From Bacteroidia bacterium (GTDB lineage Bacteria; Bacteroidota; Bacteroidia; M30B66): a stretch of 41,997 bases of DNA. The DNA lies in NCBI GenBank assembly GCA_019695235.1, contig JAIBAI010000022.1, forward strand, positions 1-41,997. Direction: 5' to 3'. Below the pieces are notes generated by a model. The model saw nothing but the letters and a program-made list of their open reading frames with translations. It had not been told where the DNA came from and ran no database searches. The position numbers and the translations under genes were made by a program. This document shows positions 1,915-39,861 of this stretch, piece by piece. Position 1 is the first letter of the stretch. Each line of letters begins with the position of its first letter.

Positions 1915-2508
1915 TCAACCTGGCTTGTGCCGATTTTCAAGCACCCGAATCACATCATTTAGCTCAAAGTCTTTTGCCCGCAGCAGAATCAGGTAATGAA
2001 ACAGCAGGTCGGCAGCCTCAGCTAAGAAAAGATTTTCATTCTGGTCTTTGGCTTCAATAACCAATTCTACCGCCTCCTCCCCTACTTTTTGGGCAATTTT
2101 ATTGATGCCTTTTTTAAAAAGCGAGCTGGTATAAGATGATTCTGAAGGGTTTTCTGCTCTTTGCCGGATGATTTGCTCTAATTGACCGATAAAGCCTGCC
2201 TGCTGATTGCTGTTTTCAAAGCAGGTAAGGCTACCGGTATGGCACACCGGGCCTGCGGGAGAAGCTTGAATCAGAAGCGTATCAGCGTCGCAATCTACGG
2301 CTATAGATTTCAGGTAGAGGTAATTTGCACTGCTTTCGCCCTTAAGCCACAGGCGGTTGCGGCTCCTGCTGTAGAACCAGAGGCGCCCTTCCTGAAGGGT
2401 TTTATCATAACTTTCATGGTTCATATATGCCAGCATCAGCACGGTGCCGGTGCTTGCGTCCTGAATAATTGCCGGAAGGAGTCCCTTGCTAAAATCTGGC
2501 TGTTTCAT
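1915..2508 (-). CDS. hisIE: Bifunctional phosphoribosyl-AMP cyclohydrolase / phosphoribosyl-ATP pyrophosphatase
   Basis: 197 residues, the normal length for a fused HisIE. It performs steps 2 and 3 of histidine synthesis: HisE removes pyrophosphate from PR-ATP and HisI opens the adenine ring of PR-AMP. The HisI half (about 1-105) shows VDCDADTLL (metal-binding region, C73) and GPVCHTG...CF with C89 and C96 as zinc-ligand candidates. The HisE half (about 115-197) shows [20 protein letters not shown], then [10 protein letters not shown] and a helical [13 protein letters not shown]. It is the last gene of the his operon, and its ATG overlaps the hisF stop by 4 nt (ATGA). Confidence 0.97.
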
Positions 2509-3260
2509 CTGATGTGAATAGATTGGTTTCTTAAAAATGTTTTGAGTTGCTGAATCGGGATTTCTCCTGAATGAAACACCGAAGCTGCCAGTGCCGCATC
2601 AGCCTGACCTGCCTGAAACACATCGGCAAAATGCTGTAAATTCCCTGCCCCTCCACTGGCAATTACCGGTACATTAACTGCGCTTGACACTTGTGAAGTA
2701 AGCTCAATGGCGAAGCCATCACGGGTACCGTCATGGCTCATGGAGGTAAGAAGCACCTCTCCTGCGCCACGTTCAACACCTTCCAGAACCCAATCAATGC
2801 AAGGCTTCCCTGTAGGCATCCGGCCCCCATTGAGATACACCTGCCAGCCCTGCTCATCTAAACGTACATCCACTGCCAGTACAATACACTGTCGGCCAAA
2901 AAGAGAGGCTAAGTCAGAAAGCAACGAAGGCGAGCGAAAAGCAGCAGAATTCACCGAAACTTTATCCGCCCCTGCCTCCAGGAGCAAACCCACATCTGCC
3001 GGTGCACTTATCCCACCGCCCACGGTAAAGGGGATGTTTAGCTCTTTTGCCACCCGTTTCACAAGGGCCGCAAAGGTTTTTCTGCCCTCATGCGTTGCCA
3101 TGATATCGAGCAATACCAATTCATCAGCTCCCTCTTCTGCATAGCGTGCGGCAAGTTCTACCGGGTCGCCTATGGTTTTTAAATCAACAAAATTGACTCC
3201 TTTCACCGTTTGGCCATCCTTGATATCAAGACAAGGGATAATACGTTTTGCTAATGGCAT
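2505..3260 (-). CDS. hisF: Imidazole glycerol phosphate synthase, cyclase subunit
   Basis: 251 residues, a full-length (beta/alpha)8 barrel. It uses ammonia from HisH to turn PRFAR into imidazole glycerol phosphate and AICAR, the latter feeding purine synthesis. The start is the family signature [16 protein letters not shown], with the catalytic Asp in CLDIKDG; the second catalytic Asp is in [10 protein letters not shown] near residue 130. The phosphate-binding ends VGGGIS and ASGGAGN are present. The ATG follows the hisA stop by 1 nt and the stop overlaps hisIE, so translation is probably coupled. Nothing is unusual about it. Confidence 0.97.
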
Positions 3261-3261
3261 C

Positions 3262-3987
3262 CTATGCGTTAAATGTTTGTAATTCTTTCAGAGAAATTTT
3301 CCCTTCGTAATATGCTTTTCCGATAATTGCACCTGAGCAGCCCGTCGCCTTTAATTTATGCAGGTCATCCATGCAGCTCACTCCACCGCTGGCTGTAAGT
3401 TTCAGCTTCGGAAACTCTTCAAGTAAACGTTTGTACAAATCAGTTGAAGGACCGCTCAGCATCCCATCACGTTGAATATCTGTACAAAATACTTTTGTCA
3501 CACCGATTTCAAGTAACTGTCTGATAAATGAATCAATGTGCATGGATGTGTTTTCGGTCCAACCTTTTACGGCAATCAACTCATTGCGTACATCTGCACC
3601 AGTAAAAATTTTTTCAGCCCCAAATTCAAGCACAAATTCAGCAAACAATTCAGATTGTTTCAATGCCAGACTCCCAATAGCAGCCATTTCTGCACCAGCA
3701 TCAAAAACCGACTGCAAATCATCACGGCATGCGATACCGCCCCCAAAGTCAATTTGCAATTTAGTTTGTTTTGCCAGGCGCTCTAATACCGGTAAGTTCT
3801 TAAGACTGCCTGCCTTGGCTCCATCTAAATCCACCAAGTGCAGGCGGCGAATCCCAGCATCTTCAAATCGCAGAGCCATTTCCAGCGGATCATTGGCATA
3901 AACTTTTTTTTGCGTGTAATCGCCCTGACTTAAGCGCACTGCCTGGCCATCAATCAGGTCAATGGCTGGAATAATTTCAAAACTCAT
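3262..3987 (-). CDS. hisA: ProFAR isomerase (HisA)
   Basis: 241 residues, full length. It catalyses the Amadori rearrangement of ProFAR to PRFAR (step 4). The catalytic Asp lies in [15 protein letters not shown] near the N-terminus, and the second in [15 protein letters not shown]. Barrel phosphate-binding motifs DFGGGIA and TASGGVS are intact. It is clearly HisA rather than the HisF paralogue because of the [11 protein letters not shown] start. The ATG overlaps the hisH stop by 4 nt (ATGA), as expected for HisH, HisA and HisF being made in balanced amounts. Confidence 0.97.
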
Positions 3988-4586
3988 AATTGAATAAAAT
4001 TTTCAAGAATTCGGGCACCAGCTTCACCTGATTTTTCCGGATGAAATTGAACGCCATAAAAATTATCCCGGTGTAATGCTGCTGAAAAAGGGACAATATA
4101 GTCCGTTATTGCAATGGTATGTTCACCCAAATCTGCCGCATAGCTATGAACAAAATACTGCCAGCTGTTTTCGTCAATACCGTTAAACAATGATGTTTTC
4201 AAATTACTAATTGTGTTCCACCCCATTTGAGGAACTTTCTGTTCACCCTTAAACAAGCTTACATTGGCATCAAAAATCCCTAAGCAGCGGGTATCCCCTT
4301 CTTCCGAGTATTTACACATCAATTGCATGCCCAGACAAATGCCCAAAAACGGCTGCCTAAGCGAGATAATGAGTTTGTCTAAACCACGTTCTTTCAGGTA
4401 AGTCATTGCACTCGAAGCCTCACCTACCCCCGGAAAAATCACATGGCTTGCTTCCTTTATCTGCTCATGGCTATCAGTTACCATTGCTTGTATTCCCAAT
4501 CTTTCAAGTGCAAACAGTACCGACCTGATATTGCCCGCATTGTATTGAATGATGGCGATATTCTTCGAAGGTTCATTTATGGTCAT
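3984..4586 (-). CDS. hisH: Imidazole glycerol phosphate synthase, glutaminase subunit
   Basis: 200 residues. A class I glutamine amidotransferase that hydrolyses glutamine and channels ammonia to HisF. The nucleophile Cys is in FLGICLGMQLM near residue 84, and the His-Glu of the triad in GVQFHPEKSG near the C-terminus. The fold begins at IAIIQYNAGNIRSV, so seven or so residues precede the usual start; no other ATG or good start lies between. It follows hisB after a 33-nt gap, the largest gap inside the operon, but I see no promoter there. Confidence 0.96.
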   Translation of the reverse strand: MTINEPSKNIAIIQYNAGNIRSVLFALERLGIQAMVTDSHEQIKEASHVIFPGVGEASSAMTYLKERGLDKLIISLRQPFLGICLGMQLMCKYSEEGDTRCLGIFDANVSLFKGEQKVPQMGWNTISNLKTSLFNGIDENSWQYFVHSYAADLGEHTIAITDYIVPFSAALHRDNFYGVQFHPEKSGEAGARILENFIQL

Positions 4587-4619
4587 GCTCAGGTTTCGTT
4601 TTTCAGTTTGAAAGCTTTA

Positions 4620-5735
4620 TCATAATATTCCTTTTGTACTTGGCAAAACCAAGTGTTGCGGGTCTCTTTTAACAGCTGCTTTTATTGCCCTGGCAAATGC
4701 CTTAAAGACACCTTCAATCTTATGGTGCTCATTTTCTCCTTCTGAGCTGATATGCAGGTTGCAGCGCGCAGCATCAGAAAACGATTTAAAAAAGTGATAA
4801 AACATTTCAGTAGGTACATCACCAATTTTTTCACGTTTAAACTCCACATTCCATACAAGCCAACTACGACCTCCAAAGTCTAATGAAACCTGCGCCAGAC
4901 AATCATCCATTGGCAATGAATAGCCATAGCGCTCAATTCCTCTTTTATCACCCAAAGCCAATGAAAATGCTTCCCCAAGAGCAATGCCGGTGTCTTCGAT
5001 AGTATGGTGTTCATCAATATGAAGGTCTCCTTTTGCCTTAATAAATAAATCTAACTGTCCGTGCCGTGCCAATTGTTCAAGCATGTGGTCAAAAAAATGC
5101 AGTCCGGTATTTATCTGGTAGCGGCTATTGCCCTCTAATCGCAATGAAATATCTATTGCTGTTTCAGCGGTATTGCGTTGATGTTTCACTTCCCGAAGCG
5201 GTAATGCTAAAAACTGGTAAATCTCGCTCCAGTGCCCTGCAATCAGGTCAATCTGTTCTGCCATGGGTGCGGGGTCATCGTAATTTCTTAAAAAGATAGA
5301 GCCGGTGCCCAAATTGGCAGCTAATTGTACGTCTGTTAAACGGTCACCAATTACAAAAGATTTTTTCAAATCAACGCTTCCATCCAGGTATGCAGTGAGC
5401 ATACCTATACCTGGTTTACGCGTAGGCAATTTTTCATGCTCGAATGAATTGTCAATATGAATTGCAGAAAACCTGATATTCTCAACTGCCAGATTGCGTA
5501 GCATGATATCTTGAATCTGTTCAAATGCCGCCCAGGGATATTTTTCCGTGCCCAAACCATCCTGGTTACTTACCAACACAAGTTCGTAATCTGTTTCACG
5601 TGCGATTTTCCCAAGGTAATGCATCACACCGGGCAACAACAAAAAAACTTCAGGTTTGTCAATCTGGAAGGTCACAGGTGGTTCTAAAATCAGTGTTCCA
5701 TCACGGTCAATAAAAAGTATCTTTCTCATCTGCAT
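4620..5735 (-). CDS. hisB: Bifunctional histidinol-phosphatase / imidazoleglycerol-phosphate dehydratase
   Basis: 371 residues, a fusion of a HAD phosphatase (about 1-170) and IGP dehydratase (about 180-371), for steps 8 and 6. HAD motifs: FIDRDGTL, VSNQDG, TRKPGIGM, GDRLTDVQLA. Dehydratase motifs: FFDHMLEQLARHG, DEHHTIEDTGIALGEA and EGENEHHKIEGVFKAFARA, which hold the manganese-binding histidines. The HAD half lacks the cysteine-rich zinc loop (CxHx5CxCRKP) of the E. coli enzyme: the loop before RKP reads HIDNSFEHEKLPT with no Cys. The ATG abuts the hisC stop directly (TAAATG); a second ATG two codons in is possible. Confidence 0.96.
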   Translation of the reverse strand: MQMRKILFIDRDGTLILEPPVTFQIDKPEVFLLLPGVMHYLGKIARETDYELVLVSNQDGLGTEKYPWAAFEQIQDIMLRNLAVENIRFSAIHIDNSFEHEKLPTRKPGIGMLTAYLDGSVDLKKSFVIGDRLTDVQLAANLGTGSIFLRNYDDPAPMAEQIDLIAGHWSEIYQFLALPLREVKHQRNTAETAIDISLRLEGNSRYQINTGLHFFDHMLEQLARHGQLDLFIKAKGDLHIDEHHTIEDTGIALGEAFSLALGDKRGIERYGYSLPMDDCLAQVSLDFGGRSWLVWNVEFKREKIGDVPTEMFYHFFKSFSDAARCNLHISSEGENEHHKIEGVFKAFARAIKAAVKRDPQHLVLPSTKGIL

Positions 5736-6803
5736 TTATTTTTCAGCGTTCATATTAATTCCCTTCTGCAGGCTGGCCAACAGCAATTTATTTTCTTCTT
5801 GTGACCCAATAGTAATTCGCAAGCAATCTTCACATAAACTCACCATTGAGCGATCACGCACCACTATACCTTCATTCAGCAGTTGCGAATAAACTTTGCG
5901 GGCATCATTAAATCTGACCAACACAAAATTAGCATCCGAAGGGTATACTTTAATTACATTTGGTAAGCCGGCTAGTGCAACAAGCAGCTTCTCACGCTCA
6001 TGCAGCAACAGGTTCACTTTCTCTTCTACCTGACCTGAAAGTGCAAGCGCTTTTAATGCCATTTCCTGCACCACTGCACTAAGGTTGTATGGTGCCTTTA
6101 CTTTCATCATTACCTCAATAAGTTCAACTGAGCCAAAAGCCATACCTAAACGTAGCCCAGCCAGTCCCCAGGCTTTTGAAAATGTCTGTAATACCACAAG
6201 GTTCGGAAAATTATCCAATTCTTCTAACCACGAAGGCTGAGAAGAAAAATCAATATAGGCCTCATCAATTACAACAATACCCTTAAACCAGTGTAGTAAA
6301 TCTGAGATGTCTTCTCTTCTGAAAGCATTGCCACTCGGGTTATTGGGCGAACAGATAAACAACAGTTTCTCACTACCCTTGCATGTGCTTTTTATTGCGC
6401 CAAGGTCTAACTGAAATTCATTTGTTAAAGGCACATTCAGTGTTTTAACATCATGAATAGCTGCCGAAACAGCGTACATTCCGTAAGTAGGCTGACAAAC
6501 CACTACCTGGTCGTCACCCGGCTTACAAAACATGCGAAACAACAAATCAATTGCCTCGTCACTGCCATTGCCTAAAAAAATCTGTTCTGCCGGAATATGT
6601 TTTAAACCTGAAATTTTGGCTTTTAACTTTTCCTGACCCGGATCGGGATAGCGGTGGTATGTTTCACCTATAGGAGAACCCATGCTATTTTCATTGGCAT
6701 CTAAAAACACCTTTGCTTCGCCGGTAAACTCATGTCTTGCCGAAGAATAAGGTGTTAATTGAAGTATGTTTTTGCGTAATATGGATGCTAATTCAAATGG
6801 CAT
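5736..6803 (-). CDS. hisC: Histidinol-phosphate aminotransferase
   Basis: 355 residues. A PLP-dependent, fold-type I aminotransferase that converts imidazole acetol phosphate and glutamate to histidinol phosphate (step 7). The PLP lysine is in TFSKAWGLAGLRLG; the substrate and cofactor contacts include LDANENSMGSP, CSPNNPSGN and VVIDEAYIDFS. I chose ATG 6803 (MPFELASILRKNILQLTPYSSARHEF region), because it matches the usual HisC start and sits 7 nt after the hisD stop; the alternative is a TTG at 6821 that would add six residues and overlap hisD. Confidence 0.96.
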   Translation of the reverse strand: MPFELASILRKNILQLTPYSSARHEFTGEAKVFLDANENSMGSPIGETYHRYPDPGQEKLKAKISGLKHIPAEQIFLGNGSDEAIDLLFRMFCKPGDDQVVVCQPTYGMYAVSAAIHDVKTLNVPLTNEFQLDLGAIKSTCKGSEKLLFICSPNNPSGNAFRREDISDLLHWFKGIVVIDEAYIDFSSQPSWLEELDNFPNLVVLQTFSKAWGLAGLRLGMAFGSVELIEVMMKVKAPYNLSAVVQEMALKALALSGQVEEKVNLLLHEREKLLVALAGLPNVIKVYPSDANFVLVRFNDARKVYSQLLNEGIVVRDRSMVSLCEDCLRITIGSQEENKLLLASLQKGINMNAEK

Positions 6804-6810
6804 ATTTTCG

Positions 6811-8100
6811 TTATTTTTCAATCTGTTTTAACCGGATGCTCACTGCATTACGGTGTGCTGAAAGTCCTTCTGCCTCAGCCATTTGCTCAACAGCCGGACC
6901 AATATTTTGGAGGCCATGAGCGCTGATACGTTGGAAGGTAATTTTCTTTACAAAACTATCAAGTGACACGCCACTGTACGACCTTGCAAAACCCATCGTT
7001 GGTAGGGTGTGATTGGTTCCGGAAGCATAATCTCCGGCACTTTCAGGACTGAACTGTCCTAAAAAAACAGAGCCTGCATTTTGCACCAATGTTACCAGCT
7101 CATCTTCGTTTTTGCAGTTGATAATAAGGTGTTCAGGGGCGTAGCGATTGATTAGTTCCATGCCTTCATGAAGGTTTTCGACAAGCAGCACGAAACTATG
7201 TGCGAGCGCCTTACGGGCAATTGCTTTACGGGGCAGGTCTTTCAATTGTAATTCAAGTGCTGCCATTACCTCTTCTATCAGTAGTTCACTGTTGCTCACC
7301 AACAGCACCTGACTATCAGGTCCATGCTCTGCCTGCGACAATAAATCAGCTGCAACAAATGATGCATTAGCTGTTTCATCTGCGAGGATGGCCAACTCTG
7401 ACGGGCCTGCCGGAAGGTCAATGGCAACACCTTTGGCAGAAACAAGCTGTTTTGCCAGCGTTACCCACGCATTTCCAGGACCGAACAACTTATCTACTTT
7501 CGGAATACTTTCGGTTCCAAAGGCCATTGCTGCAATAGCCTGTGCCCCCCCCACCCTGAAAATTCGCTTAATCCCAGTCAGGTGGGCTGCGAATAAAATT
7601 GCAGGGTGCACTTCACCATTCTGGCCCGGTGGGGTGCACAATATTACCTCCTTACATCCGGCCAGTTGTGCTGGAATACCCAACATTAGCAGGGTTGAGA
7701 ATAAAGGAGCTGAACCTCCGGGAATATACAGGCCCACCCTTTCAATAGCTATTGATTTTCGCCAGCACCGTACCCCTGGCATGGTTTCAATTTCTCTTTG
7801 AGCCTCTGCTTGCGCTTTGTGGAATGCACTAATATTTGCAGCGGCCAGTCGCATCGCCTGACACAGCGCTTCCGGCAATTGCTTTTCTGCTTTACTTATT
7901 TCAGTTGGGTCAATTTCAAACCCTGATAGGCTTACTTTATCATACTTCTGCGAAAATGCATGCAAAGCCATATCACCTTGCGTTTCAACTTGCTCAAGGA
8001 TGTCGTTCACCTGCTCACCTATGTCGGCAAGGCTGGCAGCAGCGCGTTTAAACAAGGCATGTAAATCACCTTCACCGGGATTTTTCAGATAGGTTAACAT
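6811..8100 (-). CDS. hisD: Histidinol dehydrogenase
   Basis: 429 residues, full length. It oxidises histidinol to histidine in two NAD-dependent steps (steps 9 and 10) and needs zinc. Visible motifs: GLYIPGGSAPLFSTLLMLGIPA, the NAD-site VGGAQAIAAMAFGTE, KLFGPGNAWVTLAK, DLPAGPSELAILAD, DLLSQAEHGPDSQ with a zinc-ligand His, APEHLI and SGTNHTLPT. It overlaps the hisG stop by 1 nt (TGATG), which fits coupled translation. No anomalies. Confidence 0.97.
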   Translation of the reverse strand: MLTYLKNPGEGDLHALFKRAAASLADIGEQVNDILEQVETQGDMALHAFSQKYDKVSLSGFEIDPTEISKAEKQLPEALCQAMRLAAANISAFHKAQAEAQREIETMPGVRCWRKSIAIERVGLYIPGGSAPLFSTLLMLGIPAQLAGCKEVILCTPPGQNGEVHPAILFAAHLTGIKRIFRVGGAQAIAAMAFGTESIPKVDKLFGPGNAWVTLAKQLVSAKGVAIDLPAGPSELAILADETANASFVAADLLSQAEHGPDSQVLLVSNSELLIEEVMAALELQLKDLPRKAIARKALAHSFVLLVENLHEGMELINRYAPEHLIINCKNEDELVTLVQNAGSVFLGQFSPESAGDYASGTNHTLPTMGFARSYSGVSLDSFVKKITFQRISAHGLQNIGPAVEQMAEAEGLSAHRNAVSIRLKQIEK

Positions 8101-8954
8101 CAGATTATCATCTTTTCAATGGGTACAACTAAAATACCTTGGGCTCCGTTTGCTTTCAACTTCTCAATGATTTGCCAAAAATCATGCTCTGTAACAACAC
8201 TGTGCACTGAACTCCAGCCTTTTTCTGCCAGGGGTAATACAGTCGGACTTTTCATGCCCGGCAGAATATTAATGATGGCCTCTAACTTTTCATTGGGAGC
8301 ATTCAACAGAATATACTTGTTATTTCTGGCCTTGCGTACTGCATTTATCCGGAAAATCAATTGCCTTAACAATTCAGCCTTTGGCAATTCTAAAGCCTCA
8401 TGGGCTATTAAAACTGCTTCTGATTGCAGCACAGGATGTACTTCTTTTAATCCATTGCTTAAAAGCGTACTGCCAGAACTAACCAAATCACAGATTGCAT
8501 CTGCAAGGCCTATGCCCGGGGCTATCTCTACGGAGCCACTAATTTCATGAATCTCAGCCCGAATCTTGTTTTTATTTAGAAAGTTCTGCAATATGCGCGG
8601 GTATGATGTGGCAATTCGCTTGTCTCTGAGACTTTGCATGCCATTCCAATCCTGCTCACGCGGAATAGCCAGTGAAAGGCGGCATTTAGAAAACCCAAGT
8701 TTCTCAACCAAATCTACCGATTTAGCCTTTTCATGCATTACATTTTCGCCTACAATACCAATATCAGCCACAGCATCTTCAACATACTGTGGTATATCAT
8801 CATCACGTAAAAAGAGCACCTCCATCGGGAAATCTTCTGCTTCGGCCTTCAGCCGGTTCATCCCGTTGTGAATATGGATTCCGCATTCATGCAATAACTT
8901 CATACTGTCGTCGTGCAAACGACCTGATTTTTGAATGGCTATTTTTAGTTTCAT
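8100..8954 (-). CDS. hisG: ATP phosphoribosyltransferase, long form
   Basis: 284 residues, the long (HisG-L) form: a bilobal catalytic part (about 1-210) plus a C-terminal ACT-like regulatory domain (about 212-284, INILPGMKSPTVLPL then VHSVVTEHDFW) that normally binds histidine for feedback inhibition. It condenses ATP and PRPP, the committed step. The PRPP-binding loop is SSGSTLLSNGL; the start MKLKIAIQKSGRLHDDS is standard. No HisZ partner is needed for this form. The ATG lies 7 nt after the U-run of a transcription terminator, so expression depends on read-through; see the leader features. Confidence 0.97.
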   Translation of the reverse strand: MKLKIAIQKSGRLHDDSMKLLHECGIHIHNGMNRLKAEAEDFPMEVLFLRDDDIPQYVEDAVADIGIVGENVMHEKAKSVDLVEKLGFSKCRLSLAIPREQDWNGMQSLRDKRIATSYPRILQNFLNKNKIRAEIHEISGSVEIAPGIGLADAICDLVSSGSTLLSNGLKEVHPVLQSEAVLIAHEALELPKAELLRQLIFRINAVRKARNNKYILLNAPNEKLEAIINILPGMKSPTVLPLAEKGWSSVHSVVTEHDFWQIIEKLKANGAQGILVVPIEKMII

Positions 8955-8960
8955 AAAAGC

Positions 8961-8991
8961 AAAAAAAAAGGCTTACCGTTTCTGGTAAGCC
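8961..8991 (-). terminator. his attenuator: intrinsic terminator hairpin just before hisG
   Basis: On the minus strand GGCTTACC, loop AGAAAC, GGTAAGCC forms a perfect 8-bp stem (8970-8991), followed directly by nine T (8961-8969). It sits between the his promoter and the hisG ATG, so it would stop transcription before the first gene unless an alternative fold prevents it. Confidence 0.85.
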
Positions 8992-9022
8992 ATTGATAGT
9001 ATCTGTTTATACAATACACCGT

Positions 9023-9076
9023 TCACTTACCTGGCGGGAAGCCGATATGCGAATGATGTATTGAGGTTAAAATCAC
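9023..9076 (-). CDS. hisL: Putative his leader peptide (17 aa, three His)
   Basis: A short frame reads GTG ATT TTA ACC TCA ATA CAT CAT TCG CAT ATC GGC TTC, and on to a TGA: MILTSIHHSHIGFPPGK. His occurs three times within four codons, far above chance in 17 residues. The stop is 31 nt before the terminator hairpin and the last sense codons form the antiterminator arm. The GTG is only 4 nt past the -7 box, so it would lie at or within a base or two of the transcript start, implying a leaderless or near-leaderless message. No ATG exists in this frame; the true initiation codon is the weakest point. Confidence 0.62.
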   Translation of the reverse strand: MILTSIHHSHIGFPPGK

Positions 9077-9080
9077 GGTG

Positions 9081-9111
9081 CAAATATACAAAAAATTCTT
9101 CACAACACAAA
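9081..9111 (-). promoter_or_regulatory. his operon promoter
   Basis: On the minus strand TTTG (9108-9111), a 19-nt spacer, then TATATTTG (9081-9088): both elements and the spacing match the Bacteroidota consensus TTTG-N19-21-TAnnTTTG. The predicted transcript start is about 9073-9077. Confidence 0.8.
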
Positions 9112-9164
9112 AATGTGCTTTTTCGTCCTTTGAAAAGAATTATATTTAAGCCTTAGATGCTTTG

Positions 9165-9172
9165 TATATTTG
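9165..9172 (+). promoter_or_regulatory. -7 box for mutL
   Basis: TATATTTG, an exact -7 match, 20 bp before the mutL ATG at 9193 and divergent from the his promoter. The nearest TTTG (9129-9132) is 32 nt away, too far for a normal -33. Confidence 0.55.
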
Positions 9173-9192
9173 CATCCGGTCAAAACCTGACA

Positions 9193-10989
9193 ATGTCTTC
9201 GATAATCCAGTTACTTCCAGAACATGTAGCCAATCAAATTGCGGCGGGTGAGGTTATTCAGCGACCTGCTTCGGCGGTAAAGGAGTTGCTTGAAAATGCA
9301 GTTGATGCCGGCGCAACAAAAATAAAACTGATTATCAAAGAAGCCGGAAGCACCTTAATACAGGTTATTGACAACGGTAGCGGAATGAATGCATTTGATG
9401 CAAGGCTCGCCTTTTCAAGGCATGCCACATCAAAAATCAGAAATGCTGATGACCTTTGGGAAATCCGCACAATGGGCTTTAGGGGTGAAGCACTTGCCTC
9501 AATGGCTGCCGTGGCACGTGTTGAAATGAAAACACGCCCGCACAGCGACGAAACGGGCACCCTGATTGAGGTTGAAGGTACTGAAATCAAGCGTCAGGAG
9601 CCCTGTGCCTGCCAGCCCGGCACCTCCATTGCAATTAAGAACCTGTTCTACAATGTGCCTGCCAGGCGTAATTTCCTAAAAAGCAACACCGTAGAAATCA
9701 GGCATATTTTTGACGAATTTCATCGGGTAGCACTGGCATTTCCGGCAATTGCATTTCAGCTATTCAGCAACGACGAAGAAATCTTCCAACTCAGCCCGGG
9801 CAACCTCAAGCAGCGAATTGCCGGAATTTTTGGCGCTACATGGAATGAAAAATTGCTTCCGGTACAAGAAAACACTGATTTAGTCAGTATCAGCGGGTTT
9901 GCCGGGAAGCCTGAGTTTGCCCGGAAAACACGTGGTGAGCAGTTTTTCTTTGTCAACAACCGTTATATCCGCAACAGTAATCTGCATCATGCTGTAATCG
10001 CCGCTTATGAAGGCTTGATCCCTCAAGGAACCTTCCCTTCCTATTTCATTTTCTTTGAAACCAATCCGGCACGTATTGATGTAAATATTCACCCTACCAA
10101 AACGGAGATAAAATTTGAGGATGAACGCAGTGTGTATGCTATCTTGCGCTCAACCATCAAGCGTTCTATCGGAGCCTATAGCCTTGCCCCACAGCTTGAC
10201 TTCGACCAAAATCCGGCATTTGAAATTCCGCTCCCTCCAAAACATGTACCGGCTAATGCACCCGCTCCTGTCATCAACCCCGGTTACGACCCGTTTAAAA
10301 ATTCAGGCAGGCCAGATGGGGCACTCAAACGACTAAGTCAGGCACGCTGGGATCAGCTTGCATTTATTGACCAGGAAGCACTGCTGTTACCAGGAGCAAG
10401 CACACAGGAAAATACAGGTACTGAAAATTCAATTCCCTGGTTGTTGCATGGCCGCTATATCCTATCGCAAGTGAAGAGTGGCCTTTTGATAATTGATATT
10501 ATCAGGGCAAAAGAGCGAATACTTTTTGAAAAATTCATTGCGCATACCGCTGGTGCTGGTGCTTCGCAACAATTGTTGTTCCCTGTGGTACGTGAATTTT
10601 CAGCACCTGATTACGCTTTGATTCAATCAATTGAGCCTGAATTAAAGGCAATGGGCTTTAGTCTCGAACCTTTTGGTACCCGCACGATGCTTATCAATGG
10701 AGTGCCTCCCGATATTCTTGAGCAGGATGCAGGAAAAGTGCTCGACCAACTGATTGAACAAATTCATAAGGGTGGTGAAGAATTAAAACTTGACACAAAA
10801 CAGGCGGTAGCAGCCAAGCTGGCTGGTTTGCTTGCCCGAACCGGGCAAATTTCAAGTGAGCCCTCAAGCCTTATTGCCCTTATAGAGCAACTTTTTGCCT
10901 GTAACACTGCCAATTACAGCCCTTCAGGTAAAAGCACTGTACAAATTCTCAGAATGGATGAGCTTTCGGCAAGGTTTGGCAAATCATAA
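9193..10989 (+). CDS. mutL: DNA mismatch repair protein MutL
   Basis: 598 residues. MutL couples MutS mismatch recognition to strand removal. The N-terminal GHKL ATPase (about 1-330) is complete: KELLENAVDAGA (catalytic Glu and Mg-binding Asn), IDNGSGM (60-65), TSKI, MGFRGEALASM (94-104), and the transducer motif QFFFVNNRYIRN with PTKTEIKF. A linker (about 335-410) precedes the C-terminal dimerisation domain. That domain has IDIIRAKERILFE (about 434-446) where endonuclease-type MutL has DQHA(x)2E(x)4E, and SPSGKSTVQ near 576 where CPHGRP is expected, so metal ligands seem to be missing. I chose ATG 9193 over an upstream in-frame ATG at 9157, because the -7 box lies between them and the family starts with this IIQLLPEHVANQIAAGEV block. 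Confidence 0.95.
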   Translation: MSSIIQLLPEHVANQIAAGEVIQRPASAVKELLENAVDAGATKIKLIIKEAGSTLIQVIDNGSGMNAFDARLAFSRHATSKIRNADDLWEIRTMGFRGEALASMAAVARVEMKTRPHSDETGTLIEVEGTEIKRQEPCACQPGTSIAIKNLFYNVPARRNFLKSNTVEIRHIFDEFHRVALAFPAIAFQLFSNDEEIFQLSPGNLKQRIAGIFGATWNEKLLPVQENTDLVSISGFAGKPEFARKTRGEQFFFVNNRYIRNSNLHHAVIAAYEGLIPQGTFPSYFIFFETNPARIDVNIHPTKTEIKFEDERSVYAILRSTIKRSIGAYSLAPQLDFDQNPAFEIPLPPKHVPANAPAPVINPGYDPFKNSGRPDGALKRLSQARWDQLAFIDQEALLLPGASTQENTGTENSIPWLLHGRYILSQVKSGLLIIDIIRAKERILFEKFIAHTAGAGASQQLLFPVVREFSAPDYALIQSIEPELKAMGFSLEPFGTRTMLINGVPPDILEQDAGKVLDQLIEQIHKGGEELKLDTKQAVAAKLAGLLARTGQISSEPSSLIALIEQLFACNTANYSPSGKSTVQILRMDELSARFGKS

Positions 10990-17367: not shown

Positions 17368-20300
17368 ATGAAAAATGTTTACCTGTTTTTGACGATTGGG
17401 CAAAGAACCGTCAATTTACTAAGTTTTATTTTCCTTTTTGTCTGCCTTCAAAGCCCTATCGTACTTTTCGCTCAGTCGCATCATACTGTCAGCTTCTCCG
17501 GAAGTACCGGTGATTTCAACAGTGTCGAAAAGTATGGTGCAGGCAACGATGTAGATTATTACGTGACCTATGATGCCAGTTACATTTATTTTGGCGCATT
17601 CAGGACCAATAGCAACACCTGGGGTCAGTATGACCATTTTACTATTTATGTCGACAGCGACCCTACCTCATCGGTAAGCTCTGGCGGCAACGGTACTACC
17701 ACCGGCATCAATTGGGACAGCAACACGCCCACTTTGCCCATTCAGGCAGATTACCGCATTGCCATCCGGCGCAACGGCAGTGGTGAGAGTTTTTACAGTA
17801 CCTATTCAGGTTCATGGTCCACCGGTAGTGCCAATGGGCAAGGGTGGACCCAATACACCACCTCTTCATCGAATGGTGCTTTAGAGGTAAGGGTTCCCTG
17901 GTCAGATTTGGGGAGTCCGGATGCAATCTATTTCACCATGTACTGCTCTTACAACGGAGGGTTCTTTGCTCCCGCCCCCGGCTCATTCAGCGGCTCAACC
18001 CTGAGTGGTTATTTCGGAGGTATCGGAACTACCAGCACCGATTGTCTTCCTCTTAACATCAGCAATACGGCCATCACCGCTTCTATAAGCAATACGGCTC
18101 CTTCATCAGGAGCTACTTATGGCCGTGTAATTGTAAGCAGTGGTGCGATAACAAATGCAAACAACTTCAGTATCGCACCCGGAGGTTCCATCAGCGTTAG
18201 TGGCGGTACTTTCACAATTGGGGCACAAACTGTCACCATGGGTGGCGGTACCAGTGGTGATGGCCGCGGCACAACTATCAACACCAGTGGCAGCGGTACG
18301 CTCAGTACCAGTTCGTCTACCGTCTTTAACTTCAATGGGGAGGGAACTGTTACAGGCAATAATCTTAGCCTGAACGCTACGGTTCAGATCCGAAAAAAAT
18401 TCACTCCACTTGCTTCAGGTGCCCTGACCTTTGCCAGTGGCAGTGCCCTCGATGTACGTTCCGGTGGCTATGTAAACACCAATGCCCCTACCTATGCCAG
18501 TGGTTCGTACCTGATGTATAATTCCGGAAATACGTATACTACAGGAACAGAATGGACGCCCAATGCTGCTTCCGGAGCTGGTGTTCCATACAACGTAACC
18601 ATTGGCAACAATATCGCAAGCTCTGTTTGTAGTTTCGGTTCATCTTCGCAATACCGGCAAGCAAACGGAACGCTCCTTATCAGTAATGCCACAGCAGGGG
18701 CAGGACTTACACTTTCTTCAAGCAGCGGTGGAGACATACGCCTGGCCGGTGATTTTAATAAACAGGGCGGTACTTTTTCATGTAATAGCCGGGCGGTAAA
18801 CTTTTACGGAAGTGCAAACCAAAGCTGGGTCAGTGATGCCACCGAAACCATTCATTACCTTAGTAATTACAATACCGGTGGCACAGTAAGCATCAACTCA
18901 TCACTTAACATCGGAAACAGCTTTACCAATAGTGCTTCCGCCTCCCTGAGCCAAACAAGTGGCACACTCACTTTTAATAGTGGCTCCAGCTTTAGCAACA
19001 GTGGTACTCTGACCGTCAACAGCGGTGCCACAGCAATTGCCAATGCAGCTTTATCTATGAATACTGCCGGCTCGTCAAATGTAATTAACGGCACACTTCG
19101 TGCAAACGATGTGGCCATCACCGGAACAACAAGCCGTCTTTCATTCGGTGCTACCGGTACTTACGAACACAATTACACCAGTAGCAATGGTGCTTTCCCC
19201 AGCGCCACCTGGAATGCTTCTTCCACTTGTATCGTAATGGGCATGACCAGTCCGGCCACTGCCTGGCCAACCAATTCTTCCGGCCAAACCTTTGGGAATT
19301 TTACCTGGAATACCCCCAGCCTTTCCACCAGCCCGGTACTGTTGAATGATTTGGATATTGCAGGTAGCTTTACACTAACAAGTACCGGCAGTTCCTCCTT
19401 TCGCATTACAGCAGGTGCAACAGGAAACATCAATTGCCTGAATTTTGTAATGGCCGCGGGTACGCTCGATTTTGCCTCAGGTGCAGGTAATGGTATTTTG
19501 AACTGCACAGGCACTTTTAATCAGACCGGAGGAACGCTTACAGAAACCAGTTCAGGTAGCGGAACAATCAACCTGATAAAGGCAAGCGGCTCACAAAACC
19601 TCACAGCATCAGGCACCGTCAGCAACACAATTGTCTGGAATATTGGCAATGGGACAAGCACCAACACCGTAGCTTTACAAGCAAATATGGCTTTAGGAAG
19701 CACCCAAAATCCGGCTTTTTATGTCAAAAACAATGCTGCTCTTGACTTTGCAACCTACGTGCTTTCTGGTTCTGCAGGCTTGTTTACTCCTGAAACAGGT
19801 TCCACATTACTATCTGCAAATACAAGTGCCAGTGGTGCAATTAACAGCAGCGGAGCAAATGGCAGCGTTCAAACGGGTAAACGCAGCTTTACCCAGACGG
19901 GTGTGCATTATACTTTTAACGCAGCGGCGGCACAAAAAACAGGTACTGCCATCGGCAAGTCAGGCGATATTGGTAACCTTACTGTAAACGTTGCCTCTGG
20001 CCTTACCTTAGACACCTTGTGCAGCCTCTCAGGCACGCTTAGCCTGAGCAACGGGATATTACAACTGGGCAACCAGCATCTGACTATAACAAACAGCGCT
20101 TCCGGAGCTATTTCCGGAGCCAATTCATCCCGTTTTATCAGAACCAATGGTACAGGTGAGCTGCGGCGCGCCATAGCATCATCGGGCCTGCCATTGACCT
20201 ATCTTTTCCCTATAGGCAGTTCAGGTGATTATACCCCGGCTTCTTTTACATTCACCACTAACAGTACCGCCCGGACGCTCTACCTTAGAGCTGTTACCCC

Positions 20301-23300
20301 ACGCAATGGCAACGATGGCACCGCAACTGATTTTATTGACAATCGTTGGTGGCGCACCGACCTCAGCCTTGCTTCCGGCACTTATGATTATACCTCTCAA
20401 TTCACCTTCCTCGCTGGTGATGTTGTAGGTACGCTGGCCAATATCCGCCTGAGCAGGTACAACACTTCCTGGAACATGCCCGCTGGAAGTTCTGCATCCG
20501 GCACCACCTTATCTTCCGGTAGTTTGGATGAAAGCAACGGACCATTAGTTGACGGCTCCGATGCATCCCAATGGGTTGGTCGGGTTACCCCGGTAAGTAC
20601 CAATTACACCTGGAATGGCAGCAGTAGTAGCGATTGGGGTACTGCCACCAACTGGACTCCCAACGGAATTCCGGGTACCATTGACAATGTTACGATTAAC
20701 GTACCCGGAACGAACACCTTGAACATCACCTCCAACCGTACCATCCAGAATTTTACCATCAATGGCACCGGTACCTTCCAGATGGCAGCATCTACCGATT
20801 TAACAATTACCGGAACAGCAAGCTATGGCGGAACTGCCTCAGTTTCACTCAATTGCAGCTCTACCATCTATTTTACCAGTGCCTCAAATGTTACCATACC
20901 TCCATTGAATTATGGTAACCTGAATGCCAGCGGCGGTGACAGAACCTTTTATTCAAGTGGTACTATAGGCATCTGCGGCACCTTTACCCCTGGAGCAGGC
21001 GCTTATACTGTTACCGGAAGTACAGTTGATTTCAATAGTGCGGGTGCTCAAACAATTCCGGGCTGCACATACAATAACCTGAGTAACAGCAACAACGGCA
21101 ACCGTACACTCAGTGGAACCATTCACATTGCTGGTACCTATTCACCTACAAGTGGCACCGTAAGTCCGGGTACATCAACTGTCAATTTCAGCAACAGCAG
21201 TGCACAAACCATTCCGGCAAGTATGTATTACAACATTACCAATACCGGTAATGGAAACCGAACCCTTGCCTCTTCAGGCACTATCAGCCTTGCCAATACA
21301 TTTACTCCGGGTACAGGAACCTATACAGTTACAGGCAGTACCGTTGAATATACCGCAGCATCAGGAACAATATCTCTGCCACAATTCACTTATAATAACC
21401 TGACTTTCAACAGCTCAGGCTCAGGTACTTTTGCTCCTGCCAGCGGGGTGAATCTGATTGTCAATAATAATTTTAACATTGGCTCTGCGGCCACCTCCTC
21501 CACCTTTAATCTGGCTTCCAATTCAGGCAGTTCAAACACCTTAACAGTTAGCGGTGATATAACTTTACAGAATGGAGGAATTCTGCAACTGATTACCAAC
21601 AGTGGTGCAAGCGGTGCAACGTTGAATGTAAGTGGCAATTTAACTGTTTCCGGCAACGGGCGTATTGACTTTGAAACCGTAAGTTCCACAAGCGGTGATG
21701 CAGTGATTCAACTTGATGGCAACTTCAATTCGAGCGGAAGTGCCACAGCTTCTGCCGGAGACAATGGTATTGTTGATTTTGGCACAGGTACCAACACAGG
21801 CAATTATTTCTATATCAAAGGTAATTTCAGCCATTCAGGCACAGGTAATTTCGGTACCCAGGGGGGCACGCAGGCAGGTGGATTTTCATTTAACAAAGCT
21901 GGCACCCAAACATTTTCTTACACAGGCGCTACAGTGAGTTCTAAATTGGCATATACCGTCAACAGTGGTGCTACCCTTCAAATGCTAAGCAATCTCGAAC
22001 TGGGTACAGGAAGCGCACCGGATACCCGTTTCTCGGTAAATGGTGTTCTTGAAATGGGCAATAAAACCATCATCGCCGGAAACACAAGCGACCCGGATTT
22101 TTTTCTTAACTCCGGCGCAAGACTTAAAATCAGTGAAGCAACAGGTATGACGGCCAACTTCAGTGGTTTTGGAGCCAGCAGGATGACTTTCGACAATAAC
22201 TCAACAGTTGAATACAACGGCACCAACCCCAACACTGGTTTCCCTGCGGTGCTTAGCTCCATTGGTGGCATTGAGTGGCTTGGTTCAGGCAACATTACAC
22301 TCAATCAAAGTGTTTCGGTTTTAGGCGCCTTTGCATTTACCAATAATGGGCATTTCTTATTGGGAAATAATACACTCACCCTGGCTATTCCATCCTCACT
22401 TAGCGGCGCTCCTTTTAGTGCAAGCAAGATGTTTGTAACCAATGGAACAGGTTATCTAAAGCAAAACTTCACAACCCCTTCGAATGTTACTGCAACATGG
22501 CATATCGGAGAGATTACCGGTACTGCTGAGTATTCTCCTGTTACCCTTACCTTCACTGCTGGCCCGGTTAACGGTGGTATCAGCTTCCGGGTAATTGATG
22601 CTGTTCATCCCGGCATGGGGGCATCTGCTAACTATGCCAGCCGCTATTGGAATACCGGGTCTACTTTTGGTACTTATAGCTGGACTGGCACCTTTACTTA
22701 TTCGGCTTCGGATATTGTTGGTGCCCAAAGCAATTTCAAATGTGACCTCTGGGACCCTGTTTTAAGCGGTTGGAATGAATATGCCAACAGCAGCGCCAGT
22801 AGCAATGTTTTAACGGTAAGCTCACCCGGAAACCCTGGCAATGGCACCCTTAACAACTGGGATGTTTGTCCAAGGCTTGATGTGCCTGAATACTACAGGT
22901 CTGTGGCCAGCGGCCCCAATTCATGGAACAGTGCATCCAGCTGGGAGGTTTCATCAGACCCCTTGTTTGTATCACCTGCACCTGTAGCGGCTTCATACGT
23001 GCCCAACGCAGCCAATTCAAGTGGAATTACCATCCGTAACGGCCATACCATCAATCTTGCATCAGACATCACAGGAGATGACATTCTGATTGAATCAGGC
23101 GCAACCCTGACCTTGGGTGCTGTATTAACTTTAAACAACGGCATTGCCGCAACCGATCTTACAATCACCGGCACATTGAATTCACAAACAGGCGGAGGCC
23201 TTATCAGGTCGGTAAACTCGAACATCAATGTAAGTGGTACCCTAAAGGTTTCCGGCAGCTCGGCAAGCGTTAGCGGAACCGGAACGACCACCTTTACAGG

Positions 23301-26300
23301 CACTGCCACCTATGAACATGGCATTAATGGCGGAACTGTACCATCTGCCACGTGGAATTCAGGTTCATTGTGCCTGATAAACGGTATGACATCCTCACCC
23401 CCCGGAGGCTTGGGACAGCCATTTCATCATTTCACATGGAACTGCTCAGGCCAGACAGCCCATGCGGGGCTGGCGGCAACATTAGCTTTTTCTGGTAGTG
23501 GTACAATATATGGCGACTTTGAAGTAGTCAACACCAACGGTTATGAACTACGGCTAACTGCCTCCAGCTCATACATTGGCGTTATCTGGGGCGATATCAA
23601 TGTTCGCAGCAATGGTATTCTGGTGCTTACCAATGCCAGCTCAGCCTTTACCCCCAATAATAATTGTAGCCTCACGGGGAACAGTGATCTTACAGTTGAA
23701 GGCAAGTTCACCGTTGCCGGCACCAATGCAAATGCAGGTCAGGCCCCTTCCGTAAGTATTGTCGGTGATATATACCTTCCAATGGGTATAGCCAACCCAC
23801 TTCTTGTTTCAGCAGGTGCAAGTGCTGCAAGCCTTTCCGGAAAAAGTCTTTATCACACTGGCAACGGTGAAGCTGTTATCGCAAACAGTAGTGGCAATGC
23901 AAGCCTTTCATTGTCGGATGCCTTTAGCCTGACCGGTTCTGGAACATTTAAACTCACCAATAGCAGTGGTAACGGAACACTCATGGTTGCTAAAAACTTC
24001 ACCCACAGCGCTGGTACACTTAGCAGGGCTTCTACAGGCACCGCAAATGTAGAGTTCAACGGCACAACGGCACAAACATACACCTCCGGTGGTACTGTAA
24101 GCGGTGATGTCAACTTTCTGGTAAAAACAAATGCCATACTCGACATGAATACCAGCTTTATTTCAGGCAGCGGCACATTCACCACACAAAATAGCAGCAC
24201 GCTGCGTTTAGGCTCGGCAGATGGCATTGTTGCCCTATCTGTGACCAATGGTAATATCAGAAACAGTGGCAGCCGCACCTTTGCCTCGGCAGCCACCTAT
24301 ACCTACAACGGTTTGGTAAATCAGCAAACCGGAAGCGGCTTACCGGCTTCCATCAGTGGCAGCCTGGTCATCAATAACACAGGCAATACCGTATCTCTAA
24401 CAAATGATGGTACTTCAGTTGGCACCCTGAACCTTCAGGCAGGCACATTTTCAATCGGTACCGGCCAAACCCTTAATATACTTAATGCGGGTACTGTAAG
24501 TATCAGCTCCGGAGCCTTCCCATCCGGAAGTACAGCCGGCACGCTGAACTTTAACGGAAACGGAAGCTTCAGCGGCACCTCTTCTCCTTACAATGTATAT
24601 GCTTCCGGTGGTGTAAATTTTGGTGTCGCAACAACTATTCAGACCGGAGGCACTTTCAGAATAAATGCCGGAGGCTATGTTGATGCAGCAAACCCACCTA
24701 CTTATGCAAGCGGGGCAAGCTTACAATATAATACTGGCGGCACTTACGGACGTTACGATGAGTGGAAGTCAACCTCTGGGGCTGGCTACCCATATCATGT
24801 GCAGCTGAGCAATAACACCACCCTCAATCTTGGTAATGGTGGCACAGGAACCGCCAGACAAATTGCCGGTAATCTGCTTATTGATGATGGCAGTACATTA
24901 AGCATGAATATCAGTGGTGCCGAAATGACTGCTGCCCTCACCGTCAATGGCGATGTAACGATTGGAAATAGCGGTACCGCATCACTTGTTTTGTCGAGCG
25001 CTATCGGAGGTGACCTTTTCGTCAAAGGAAATTTCAGCAGAAATGCCAGCTCCCTCCTCAGCGCAAACTCACGGAGGGTAAGCTTTAACGGCAGTACTGC
25101 CCAGCAAATCACCGGTGCTACAACATTTGATTATTTCACCCTAAACAACAGTGCCGGATTAACACTCAATAACGCCATTCAGATAAACAATGAATTAGAC
25201 CTGAGTAATGGTAAGATGACCATAGGGAATAACCAGGTAAGCCTAAATGGCAGTGCCACTATTGTAAACGCCTCTTCGTCAAGTTACCTGATTACCAATG
25301 GTACCGGAAGTCTTAGCAGGCAGGTAAACAATGGCGGCGGAGCGGTTCAGTTTCCAGTTGGCACTTCATCAGATTTTGCAAATGTAGGGCTGACCCAGGG
25401 TGGTACAAGTGACAACCTATCTGTTCGGGTGAAATCAGCACCCGCTTTTGATTATGCTGTAAATGACAACAGCCAGATGTTGAACTTACAGTGGGTGCTT
25501 AATGAAAACGTAGCCGGAGGTAACGCTCTGAGCACTAACTTCCAATGGCCTGTATCTGTTGAGGCAGGCAGCTTCAACCGAAGCAACCCGGTATTTCAGG
25601 CGGATTACACCGGTTCGGCCTACCAGGCAAGGCCTTCAACCGTTTCAGGCTCTAATCCATACAACTCAGCTTCATCAACCAACTTCAGCGGCAATCTCAG
25701 CAACAGAATATTCGTACTCGGCAACATAAATGGTATTTTCCCTTGTCTTGCAACAAACGCCGGAGGTGGTGACTGGCAAACAGTGGGTACCTGGGTCAAT
25801 GGTGTGGTTCCGCCTGCAGGTGCATCAGTATGTATCAACAGTGCTGTAACGGTCACCTCAACCGATCCACAAACACTTGAAAACCTCACCATTAACAGCG
25901 GAGGCAGCTTGAATATCTCCAGTGGAAGAGTCGTCACTATTTCCTCCTCCGGCACCTTAAACAACAACAGCGGTGCAGCCCAGAATTTAGGCAATGGCAC
26001 TGTGTTTTTTGCAGGTGCTGGCAGCATTTCCGGCGGACAAGCATTCACGATGAACCATTTGCATATTGACGGGGCGACTACCATCACTACCACCCCAACA
26101 ATAAACGGAAATCTTAAATTAGGCGCTTCCGGCAGCATTTCAACCGGAAGCATTAACTATGGCAGTAGTTCAACATTGGTTTATGATGGTGGAACACGCA
26201 ACACAGGCAATGAATGGACAGGCAATGCAGCAAGTGCAGGAGTAGGTGTACCGGGCGGGCTTACCATTCAAAACACAACAGCACTTTCCTTGCCTACAAG

Positions 26301-29300
26301 CAATCGTGGAATTGCCGGAAATTTAAACATCAACAGCGGTAGCCTGAATCTGAATACAAGTTCAGGCGATTTATATCTCACAGGCAACTTCAACAGGGTA
26401 AGTACTGCTACTTTCAATCCCAATAACAGGGCAGTGTTTTTCAATGGTGCAACTACCCAAACCATAGAGGTAAGTGGCGGTACAAGTGAATTGTTCAATT
26501 ATCTGTTTGTGCAAAAAACAAGTGGCAACCTTCAATTAAATGATGATGTTGAAGTTTCGGCCTCATCAGGAAATGTGTTATCTGTAAACAACACGGCCTC
26601 TATTGACCTCAATGGTAAAACGCTTACTTTATCAGGTACTGGCGGCAACCTGGCCACCAGCGGCGGACTTGTTCAAATTATTGGCAGTGCAGGCAGTACC
26701 TTATTGGTCAGCAATGGCACTAAAACCGTTACCCAGAGTGCAGGGGGCAGCTTAAGCACAGGTACGAACGTAACAGTACGGCTTCAAAACGGTTTTGACT
26801 TTGGGAACAATCTCAGTACCATCAATGGCACCTTACTGATAAATGCCGGAGGATTTGTATCAGGCAATGCGGCAAATTATGCAAGTGGCTCTGTAATAAA
26901 ATATGCCACCGGAAACAGCTATGGTCGTGGATTAGAATGGAGTGCCACCAGTGGTGCGGGTTACCCATATCACGTAGAAATTGAGCAAAATGGCACCAAC
27001 ACAACACTCGATTTAAGTAATGGTGGCTCAGCCTTAAGAAAGACAGCCGGAAATCTTACAATTCATAATGGTGCCGGATTAACCATGAACGCAATGACAA
27101 ATGCCCTGGAAGTCGCAGGAAATGTACTCATTGGCGATGGAGCAAGTGGTTCACTAACACTTTCAAGCAGCATAGGTGGTGATTTGCTCGTGGGCGGGAA
27201 TCTGACCCGAAACAGCGGTGCCACTTTTACACAAAACAGCCGTTCGGTGACAATGAATGGGGCATTAAACCAAACTATTACCGGGGTAAGTCCCTTTGAT
27301 TATCTATGCATTAATAACTCCGGTACCGCTCCAAACAATGTTGTAAGTATTGCTACCAACACGGGTATCAACAATCGTTTGACTTTAAGCAATGGCACAT
27401 TTGATATTGGAGCATATACCCTCACAATGGCCAATGCTTCTCAGATACGTCGTCAGAGTGCCACAGCAAGTATGACCGCCGCCCCAACGCTGGGAGGTGC
27501 CGACATGTATGATTTGCGTTACGATGCGAGCATGACAAATGGTGTAGAATTTTTAAGTGCCGGCAACCGGGTGCGTAACCTTGAGATTGCTTCAGGTACA
27601 CTGAGTCTTTCAGGAAATAAAACAGTAAATCTTGACCTGAAATTAGCTGGCGACTTAGATCTTGGTGGTAACACACTGGTGCTGTATGGCAACAATAGCA
27701 GTCCTGCTGTTGCTGGTAATTTAGAAATCACCAGCGGGGCAAGAAGTATCACCGGGTCAGCCGGGTCAATTTTAGACATTCGTGGAACTTTTGCCAACAA
27801 TCCCACCTGGTTTACTAAAACGGTCACTAACCCGGGAAGCGGTACACTTACCTGTGCCCCAAACGTAACTGTGCGCATTGGTGATGGCCGGATGGATTTT
27901 GGAACAGGCAGCCCGGTGACCATTAACGGCGTTCTGCAGGTGATGCTTGGGGGCTCTGTTTATCCGAATCCATGTTATTACGGCACCGCCTCAACTTTGC
28001 GTTTTGCCAACACCGTTGATTATGTGGTACCTTCATCTGACCTTACCTGGGCAGCCGGGGCTATTAGTTCGGGTAATCCGGGTATCCCGTGGAATGTAGA
28101 GGTATCAGATGTGGGCACCGACCTTCAACTGAACGATACCAGGGCATTAAGAGGCAATTTAACTATCAACAATGGGTCATTCACCCTGAGTTCAGGTTAT
28201 ACCGGCTCGTTTAACATTGGTGGTAACTGGAGCCGTTCTGGCGCCAGCAGTAACTTTGTGCACAACAACAAGAAAGTAGTTTTCGACAAGCAGGTTGCAG
28301 GCAACCAAAGTATAAGCGTAGGGAGCGGTGTAACAACAGAAACCTATTACAAACTTGAAGTATCGTGCCTTTCAGGAAACGAGCTGGCACTGGGCAGTAG
28401 CACGAACGTAACAGTGAACGACACGTTGCATTTCGATACAGGTAAATTGAATATTGGGGCATCCGGCAATGTATTAACTATCGGCACTACGAGCTCTGAT
28501 GGTGCTATTTCGGGGGCCGGAAGCAGTAAATATGTCATTTCATCCGGAGGCTTTTTGAAGAGGTTTTCAGGGTCTAATGCCGCCTATGCATTTCCCGTAG
28601 GTGATGCCTCAAACTATACCCCTTCTACAATAACCCTCAGCAGTGGTGGCCAAAGCGGGGCCTTTATCAACGTTTTAGTCGCTGCTGGTAAAAACAGTAA
28701 GTTGGGAAGCACTACGGTGTACCTGAATCGCTATTGGACTGTTGAACCATCCGGCTTGGGGGCTTCTCCGGTGTATGCAATAGACTATACTTATGCCAGT
28801 GGCGAACTCTTAGGGGGTGGAAGTGCCTATTACCCAATCAAATACAAAGAAACAGGTGCTCCGGCAGAGCAAGGATGGTGCACTTCAACCGGTGCCCCTG
28901 CGAATCCGTTAAGTCCGCCCTTTTCAAGATGCACCACAGGCACCTCATACAGCCACGGAGGCACTACCTTTACCTGGAATGGGCTTACTACCTTTTCTGA
29001 TTTCACTGCCGCAGGCGACTACGGCCCACTCCCCGTTACTTTGCTTGAGTTTGGGGCTACGCTTACAAGTACCGATGCTGTAAGATGCAGCTGGACCACC
29101 GCCAGTGAAATCAACAATAACTATTTTGTAGTTGAACGTTCATTCGATGCAATTCATTTTGAAAAGATAGGGCAGGTAAAAGGCTCAGGTAACAGTACAC
29201 AAGTGCGCGAGTATAGCTTCACTGACGCCAATCCTTACAGTGGAGTTAGTTATTACCGTTTAGTGCAGGTTGACTATAATGGCCAATCTGAAACGTTTGA

Positions 29301-39446: not shown

Positions 39447-39482
39447 AAAAAAAATGCCGGTTGCTTTCGCAACCGGCATTTT
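39447..39482 (-). terminator. Terminator of the RNase P RNA gene
   Basis: On the minus strand AAAATGCCGGTTGC, GAAA tetraloop, GCAACCGGCATTTT: a perfect 14-bp stem (39451-39482) with a GNRA loop. The run of eight T spans 39447-39454, overlapping the end of the stem. Confidence 0.9.
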
Positions 39483-39857: not shown

Positions 39858-39861
39858 AGCA

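What the first reader, a model, noticed from the sequence alone, without database searches (positions are those of the whole stretch)
8961..9111. Complete his attenuator with an HHSH leader peptide in a Bacteroidota his operon
Promoter, His-rich leader peptide, antiterminator arm (GGTAAG at the end of the peptide) and a perfect terminator hairpin just before hisG all lie in 150 bp in working order. The GGTAAG repeat in segments 2 and 4 is what a switch needs. Seen in sequence: boxes, codons and complementarity. Known: his attenuation in enterobacteria works this way. Inferred: that it operates here.
Basis: partly seen in the sequence, partly recalled or inferred. Interest (0 to 1): 0.75.

Follow-up and report, generated by a model that had tools for sequence, protein, structure and literature searches.

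The report
Histidine attenuator before hisG, Bacteroidota
Just before a histidine-making operon this bacterium carries a short histidine-rich mini-gene and two competing RNA hairpins, which almost certainly let the ribosome sense histidine shortage and switch the operon on; the same switch, with different but matching sequences, sits before hisG across much of its phylum, where it is hardly described.

Summary
On the minus strand before hisG (start 8954) lie, in order: a Bacteroidota promoter (TTG-N19-TATATTTG), a 17-codon leader ORF with His-His-Ser-His, a GGTAAG at its end, and an 8-bp terminator with nine T's. Both alternative folds are predicted: a 1:2 hairpin that hides GGTAAG, and a 2:3 antiterminator once a ribosome covers the His codons. 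Of 157 Bacteroidota hisG upstream regions, 117 have a leader ORF with a His cluster followed by a terminator, against 1 of 785 shuffles and 0 of 206 other upstream regions of this genome. The 2:3 pairing is kept while its sequence changes between lineages (GGTAAGCC with GGCTTACC; CTCAGGCG with CGTCTGAG). So this is a classical ribosome-mediated his attenuator: ordinary in mechanism, phylum-wide in Bacteroidota, without an Rfam family. A Flavobacterium psychrophilum study (PMC9723704) already reported a structured hisG 5' element and signs of leader-peptide attenuation. Histidine-dependent termination is inferred, not shown.

The parts
9081..9110 (-). promoter of Bacteroidota sigma-A type: TTG (9110-9108), N19, TATATTTG (9088-9081)
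   Evidence: sequence; TAnnTTTG at -12 to -5 in PMC9723704; the same box lies before the His leader in most relatives
9023..9076 (-). leader ORF, GTG start at the predicted +1, MILTSIHHSHIGFPPGK, stop TGA 9025-9023
   Evidence: sequence; start register matches ATG of relatives such as TATATTTGcaacATG
9047..9058 (-). His codons CAT CAT (TCG) CAT, the sensing codons, inside arm 1
   Evidence: sequence; His clusters in relatives
9012..9063 (-). 1:2 protector hairpin (CAATACATC pairs GGTGTATTG, with inner helices) that hides GGTAAG
   Evidence: MFE fold; z -3.2 for the leader part
9025..9031 (-). segment 2, GGTAAGT; its GGTAAG is a copy of the terminator 3' arm
   Evidence: pairs with segment 3, 7-bp run, 2% of shuffles as good
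8984..8991 (-). segment 3, GGCTTACC: 5' arm of the terminator and partner of segment 2
   Evidence: folds with masked ribosome positions; covariation
8961..8991 (-). 3:4 intrinsic terminator: 8-bp stem, 6-nt loop, T9
8100..8954 (-). hisG (long form), first gene of the his operon
   Evidence: Pfam HisG and HisG_C
1915..8100 (-). rest of the operon: hisD, hisC, hisB (bifunctional), hisH, hisA, hisF, hisIE
   Evidence: Pfam

Best explanation
A classical ribosome-mediated transcription attenuator of the his operon. RNA polymerase starts at about 9076, and a ribosome begins at once on the 5'-terminal GUG of a leaderless or near-leaderless leader mRNA. With enough His-tRNA the ribosome reads to the stop codon, which abuts segment 2, so segment 2 is covered or re-trapped in the 1:2 hairpin; segments 3 and 4 then form the terminator and transcription stops 6 nt before hisG. 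With too little His-tRNA the ribosome stalls on CAT CAT TCG CAT, arm 1 is masked, GGTAAGT (2) pairs with GGCTTACC (3), the terminator cannot form in time and the operon is transcribed. Shown by sequence and comparison: the elements, their conservation and the maintained complementarity. Inferred: the start codon, transcription start, timing and the response to histidine.
For: Elements in working order. Folding by ribosome position gives the expected states: untranslated RNA forms the 1:2 hairpin plus terminator (-37.4); with the first or third His codon in the A site and RNA made up to the terminator loop, 2:3 forms (-18.3 and -14.2); with the ribosome on the stop codon only the terminator forms (-13.8). 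144 of 157 Bacteroidota hisG upstream regions have an ORF with at least 3 His in 8 codons and 117 of these also a terminator; shuffles give 1 of 785 and other upstream regions of this genome 0 of 206. 2:3 complementarity exceeds shuffles at p<=0.05 in 50 of 60 GGCTTACC-type and 25 of 41 ACCCG-type leaders; exchanging segments between the two lineages destroys it (mean pairing score 12.7 and 11.8 for own pairs, 7.6 and 8.2 for exchanged ones). At core position 6 the pair is A-T 40, G-C 8, G-T 9, mismatch 1.
Against: Only three His codons here, one set apart by Ser. The start codon is a GTG and not proven. With the ribosome on the third His codon and the terminator fully transcribed, the terminator fold is again the most stable one, so the switch must be kinetic, as in known attenuators. 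The relatives include near-duplicates, so counts are not independent events; shuffles do not model phylogeny. No expression data.
Confidence: 0.92

Rival explanations
1. A constitutive partial terminator before hisG, with the His-rich ORF a coincidence.
For: The terminator alone is strong; no expression data exist.
Against: His-rich ORF plus terminator recurs before hisG throughout the class but not before other genes; segment 2 is kept complementary to segment 3 through sequence change.
Confidence: 0.03
2. Control of hisG translation: the hairpin and T-run that end 6 nt before the ATG block ribosome entry rather than ending transcription.
For: Short hairpin-to-ATG distance here; [quoted passage not shown]
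Against: The distance varies from about 10 to over 200 nt among relatives while the hairpin and T-run stay, as expected of a terminator.
Confidence: 0.03
3. A metabolite- or protein-binding riboregulator, such as a histidine riboswitch, T-box or an RNA-binding protein.
For: Ordered RNA structure.
Against: No Rfam match, T-box included; conservation lies in His codons and mutual complementarity, not in a constant aptamer sequence.
Confidence: 0.02

Closest known systems
Enterobacterial his attenuator (Rfam RF00514 His_leader)
   Same: His-codon leader peptide, protector hairpin, antiterminator and intrinsic terminator before hisG; the same logic.
   Different: No match to RF00514 in the window and only a sub-threshold one in one relative (25 bits against a cut-off of 49). 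Three His codons, predicted leaderless GTG start, Bacteroidota promoter.
Structured 5' element of hisG in Flavobacterium psychrophilum and other Flavobacteriaceae (PMC9723704)
   Same: Same phylum, gene and inferred mechanism; that paper reports strong clues for leader-peptide attenuation before amino-acid operons and names a hisG element without an Rfam hit.
   Different: Its main text does not describe the anatomy or this lineage; within the class the switch segments differ (GGCTTACC type here, ACCCGTCTGA type in others).
Bacteroid-trp RNA (RF01692)
   Same: A cis-regulatory RNA candidate of Bacteroidetes listed by Weinberg 2010; from my own knowledge, a Trp-codon leader before trp genes.
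   Different: Different operon; no match in this genome.
Firmicutes his attenuators (PMC9413887)
   Same: Three to five His codons in a row, terminator and antiterminator, found by comparative genomics.
   Different: Few lineages of another phylum; sequences not compared here.
Leaderless leader peptides of attenuators (Sinorhizobium peTrpL, actinobacterial leaders; papers found)
   Same: Leader peptide gene in a leaderless mRNA.
   Different: Other phyla; leaderlessness here is predicted only.

Membership tests
Ribosome-mediated (classical) transcription attenuator, his type | Short translated leader ORF rich in codons for the operon's end product | tested here: met
   3 His in 17 codons; 144 of 157 relatives have at least 3 His in 8 codons. 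Translation itself not tested.
Ribosome-mediated (classical) transcription attenuator, his type | Intrinsic terminator between leader ORF and first structural gene | tested here: met
   8991-8961; 117 of 157 upstream regions have it together with the His cluster
Ribosome-mediated (classical) transcription attenuator, his type | Mutually exclusive antiterminator pairing segment 2 with segment 3 | tested here: met
Ribosome-mediated (classical) transcription attenuator, his type | Protector hairpin 1:2 that includes the sensing codons | tested here: met
   (prediction; in relatives weaker, mean z -2.1)
Ribosome-mediated (classical) transcription attenuator, his type | Read-through depends on charged tRNA-His and leader translation | not testable with these tools
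   needs RNA data
Rfam RF00514 His_leader | Covariance-model score at or above the gathering cut-off | tested here: not met
   no match in the window at gathering or in the E-value search
Leaderless leader-peptide mRNA | Start codon at or within a few nt of the transcription start | tested here: inconclusive
   GTG 4 nt after the -7 box, which is +1 if the box spans -12 to -5 as in PMC9723704; start site not mapped

The most novel reading that the evidence does not exclude
Bacteroidota share an ancestral his attenuator, translated from leaderless or near-leaderless mRNA without Shine-Dalgarno, in which the switch helices have been wholly rewritten between lineages while the 1/2/3/4 logic stayed; and some lineages (Bacteroides-like, Cytophagales-like) have replaced the terminator with a hairpin around the leader's stop codon, a mechanism not yet known.
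Probability: 0.35. Interest if true: 0.6.

Novelty: new member of a known kind. Interest (0 to 1): 0.4.

Why it matters
Classical attenuation needs tight coupling of ribosome and polymerase. Bacteroidota initiate translation without Shine-Dalgarno sequences, so a phylum-wide his attenuator gives a natural reporter of coupling there. It also supplies material for an Rfam family: a recent survey still lists his attenuators for Proteobacteria and a few Firmicutes (PMC9413887).

Tried and rejected
Rfam at gathering and E-value thresholds: no relevant family. Bacteroid-trp in the own genome: none. Leaderless start as a peculiarity of the his leader: rejected as special, because about a third of this genome's sampled genes with a nearby TAnnTTTG box also start within 10 nt of it (18 of 55). 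RNAalifold on a 54-sequence MAFFT alignment recovered only the terminator because of gaps, so pairing was tested locus by locus and by exchange of segments. GGTAAG repetition as such is weak evidence: the hexamer occurs 42 times in the window. Own-family and own-order comparison gave nothing, since the nine other family genomes lack hisG.

Full report
Observation. On the minus strand of the window, 202 bp separate hisG (ATG 8954) from the divergent mutL ORF. They hold a promoter of the Bacteroidota type (TTG 9110-9108, N19, TATATTTG 9088-9081), a short reading frame with CAT CAT TCG CAT and GGT AAG TGA, and an 8-bp hairpin with nine T's ending at 8961. The genes downstream are hisG, hisD, an aminotransferase (hisC), hisB, hisH, hisA, hisF and hisIE. 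RNA from 9079 to 8957 folds at -37.6 kcal/mol, z -4.8 against dinucleotide shuffles, with two hairpins: 1:2 over the His codons and GGTAAG, and the terminator. The terminator hairpin occurs once in the genome.

Start codon. No ATG precedes the His codons in frame. GTG at 9076-9074 lies 4 nt after the -7 box. In F. psychrophilum that box spans -12 to -5 (PMC9723704), so GTG would be the first three bases of the transcript. Relatives show the same register with ATG, for example TATATTTGcagcATG (L043) and TATATTTGcaacATG (L044); of the roughly 120 leaders with a box and a start, 69 start within 13 nt of the box, with peaks at 4 and at 7-10. Short 5' ends are common in this genome in general (18 of 55 genes with a box start within 10 nt of it), so this is a trait of the lineage, not of the switch.

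Conservation. HisG relatives were collected from named genomes and from a sample of 296 genomes of the class, and upstream regions were taken. 144 of 157 have an ORF with three or more His within eight codons, 117 of these with an intrinsic terminator behind it; five rounds of dinucleotide shuffling gave 1 of 785 with both. Of 207 upstream regions in about 310 kb of this genome, only the hisG one has both. Named carriers include Chitinophaga japonensis, Sediminibacterium ginsengisoli and Phaeodactylibacter xiamenensis.

Switch. Folding with the ribosome placed on the His codons, and RNA made up to the terminator loop, gives the 2:3 antiterminator; with the ribosome on the stop codon, only the terminator. 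Across 116 leaders, 2:3 complementarity beats shuffles in most of the two main classes. The classes use unrelated sequences, GGTAAGCC with GGCTTACC and CTCAGGCG with CGTCTGAG, and exchanging segments between classes drops the pairing score from about 12 to about 8. Within the first class, a varying position shows A-T, G-C and G-T pairs but almost no mismatch, in 2:3 and 3:4 alike. The 1:2 hairpin is supported more weakly across relatives (mean z -2.1), and more strongly in the window itself (z -3.2).

What is known. Rfam has no family that matches. PMC9723704 reported strong clues for leader-peptide attenuation before amino-acid operons in F. psychrophilum and a structured hisG element conserved in Flavobacteriaceae. 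A 2021 survey of his genes in the superphylum mentions attenuation only in its account of enterobacterial regulation (PMC8305728). A 2022 survey attributes his attenuators to Proteobacteria and finds new ones in a few Firmicutes lineages (PMC9413887). Leaderless leader peptides are known elsewhere. An older comparative survey could not be read. I therefore file it as a new member of a known kind.

Limits. Nothing here measures transcription. The start codon and transcription start are predicted. Sampled genomes are related, so counts overstate independent evidence; the lineage exchange test and the compensatory changes carry the argument.

Noticed in passing
L140, L143-L147, L151-L153, L155, L156 (one family, Bacteroides-like by my guess) and L071, L073, L093-L096, L118, L125 (Cytophagales-like by my guess): His-rich leader ORFs before hisG without a canonical terminator; those examined have instead a hairpin around the leader stop codon, e.g. 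ATTCCTC-TTGA-GAGGAAT or ATCGCC-GATA-GGCGAT. Possibly a different output mechanism.
   Followed up: partly
window 1915-8954: The nine other genomes held of the same family lack hisG and hisD, five of them at least 93% complete, while mutL is present in those five: loss of the pathway in the family or gain of the operon with its attenuator in this lineage.
   Followed up: partly
window 9157-9193: mutL probably starts at ATG 9193 rather than 9157: most relatives match from residue 1-3 of the shorter form, and a TATATTTG box lies between the two ATGs.
   Followed up: partly
window, whole: The hexamer GGTAAG occurs 42 times, 15.8 expected from shuffles; unexplained.
   Followed up: no
L026 (Calditrichaceae MAG): Leader ORF with scattered His codons (MYNKTHTRTAMHANAHHCSAIHENWIFLHH) and a terminator before hisG: a possible his attenuator outside Bacteroidota.
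   Followed up: no
window 39476-39860: RNase P RNA, class A, on the minus strand.
   Followed up: no
window 17368-29592: A single ORF of 4074 aa, not examined.
   Followed up: no
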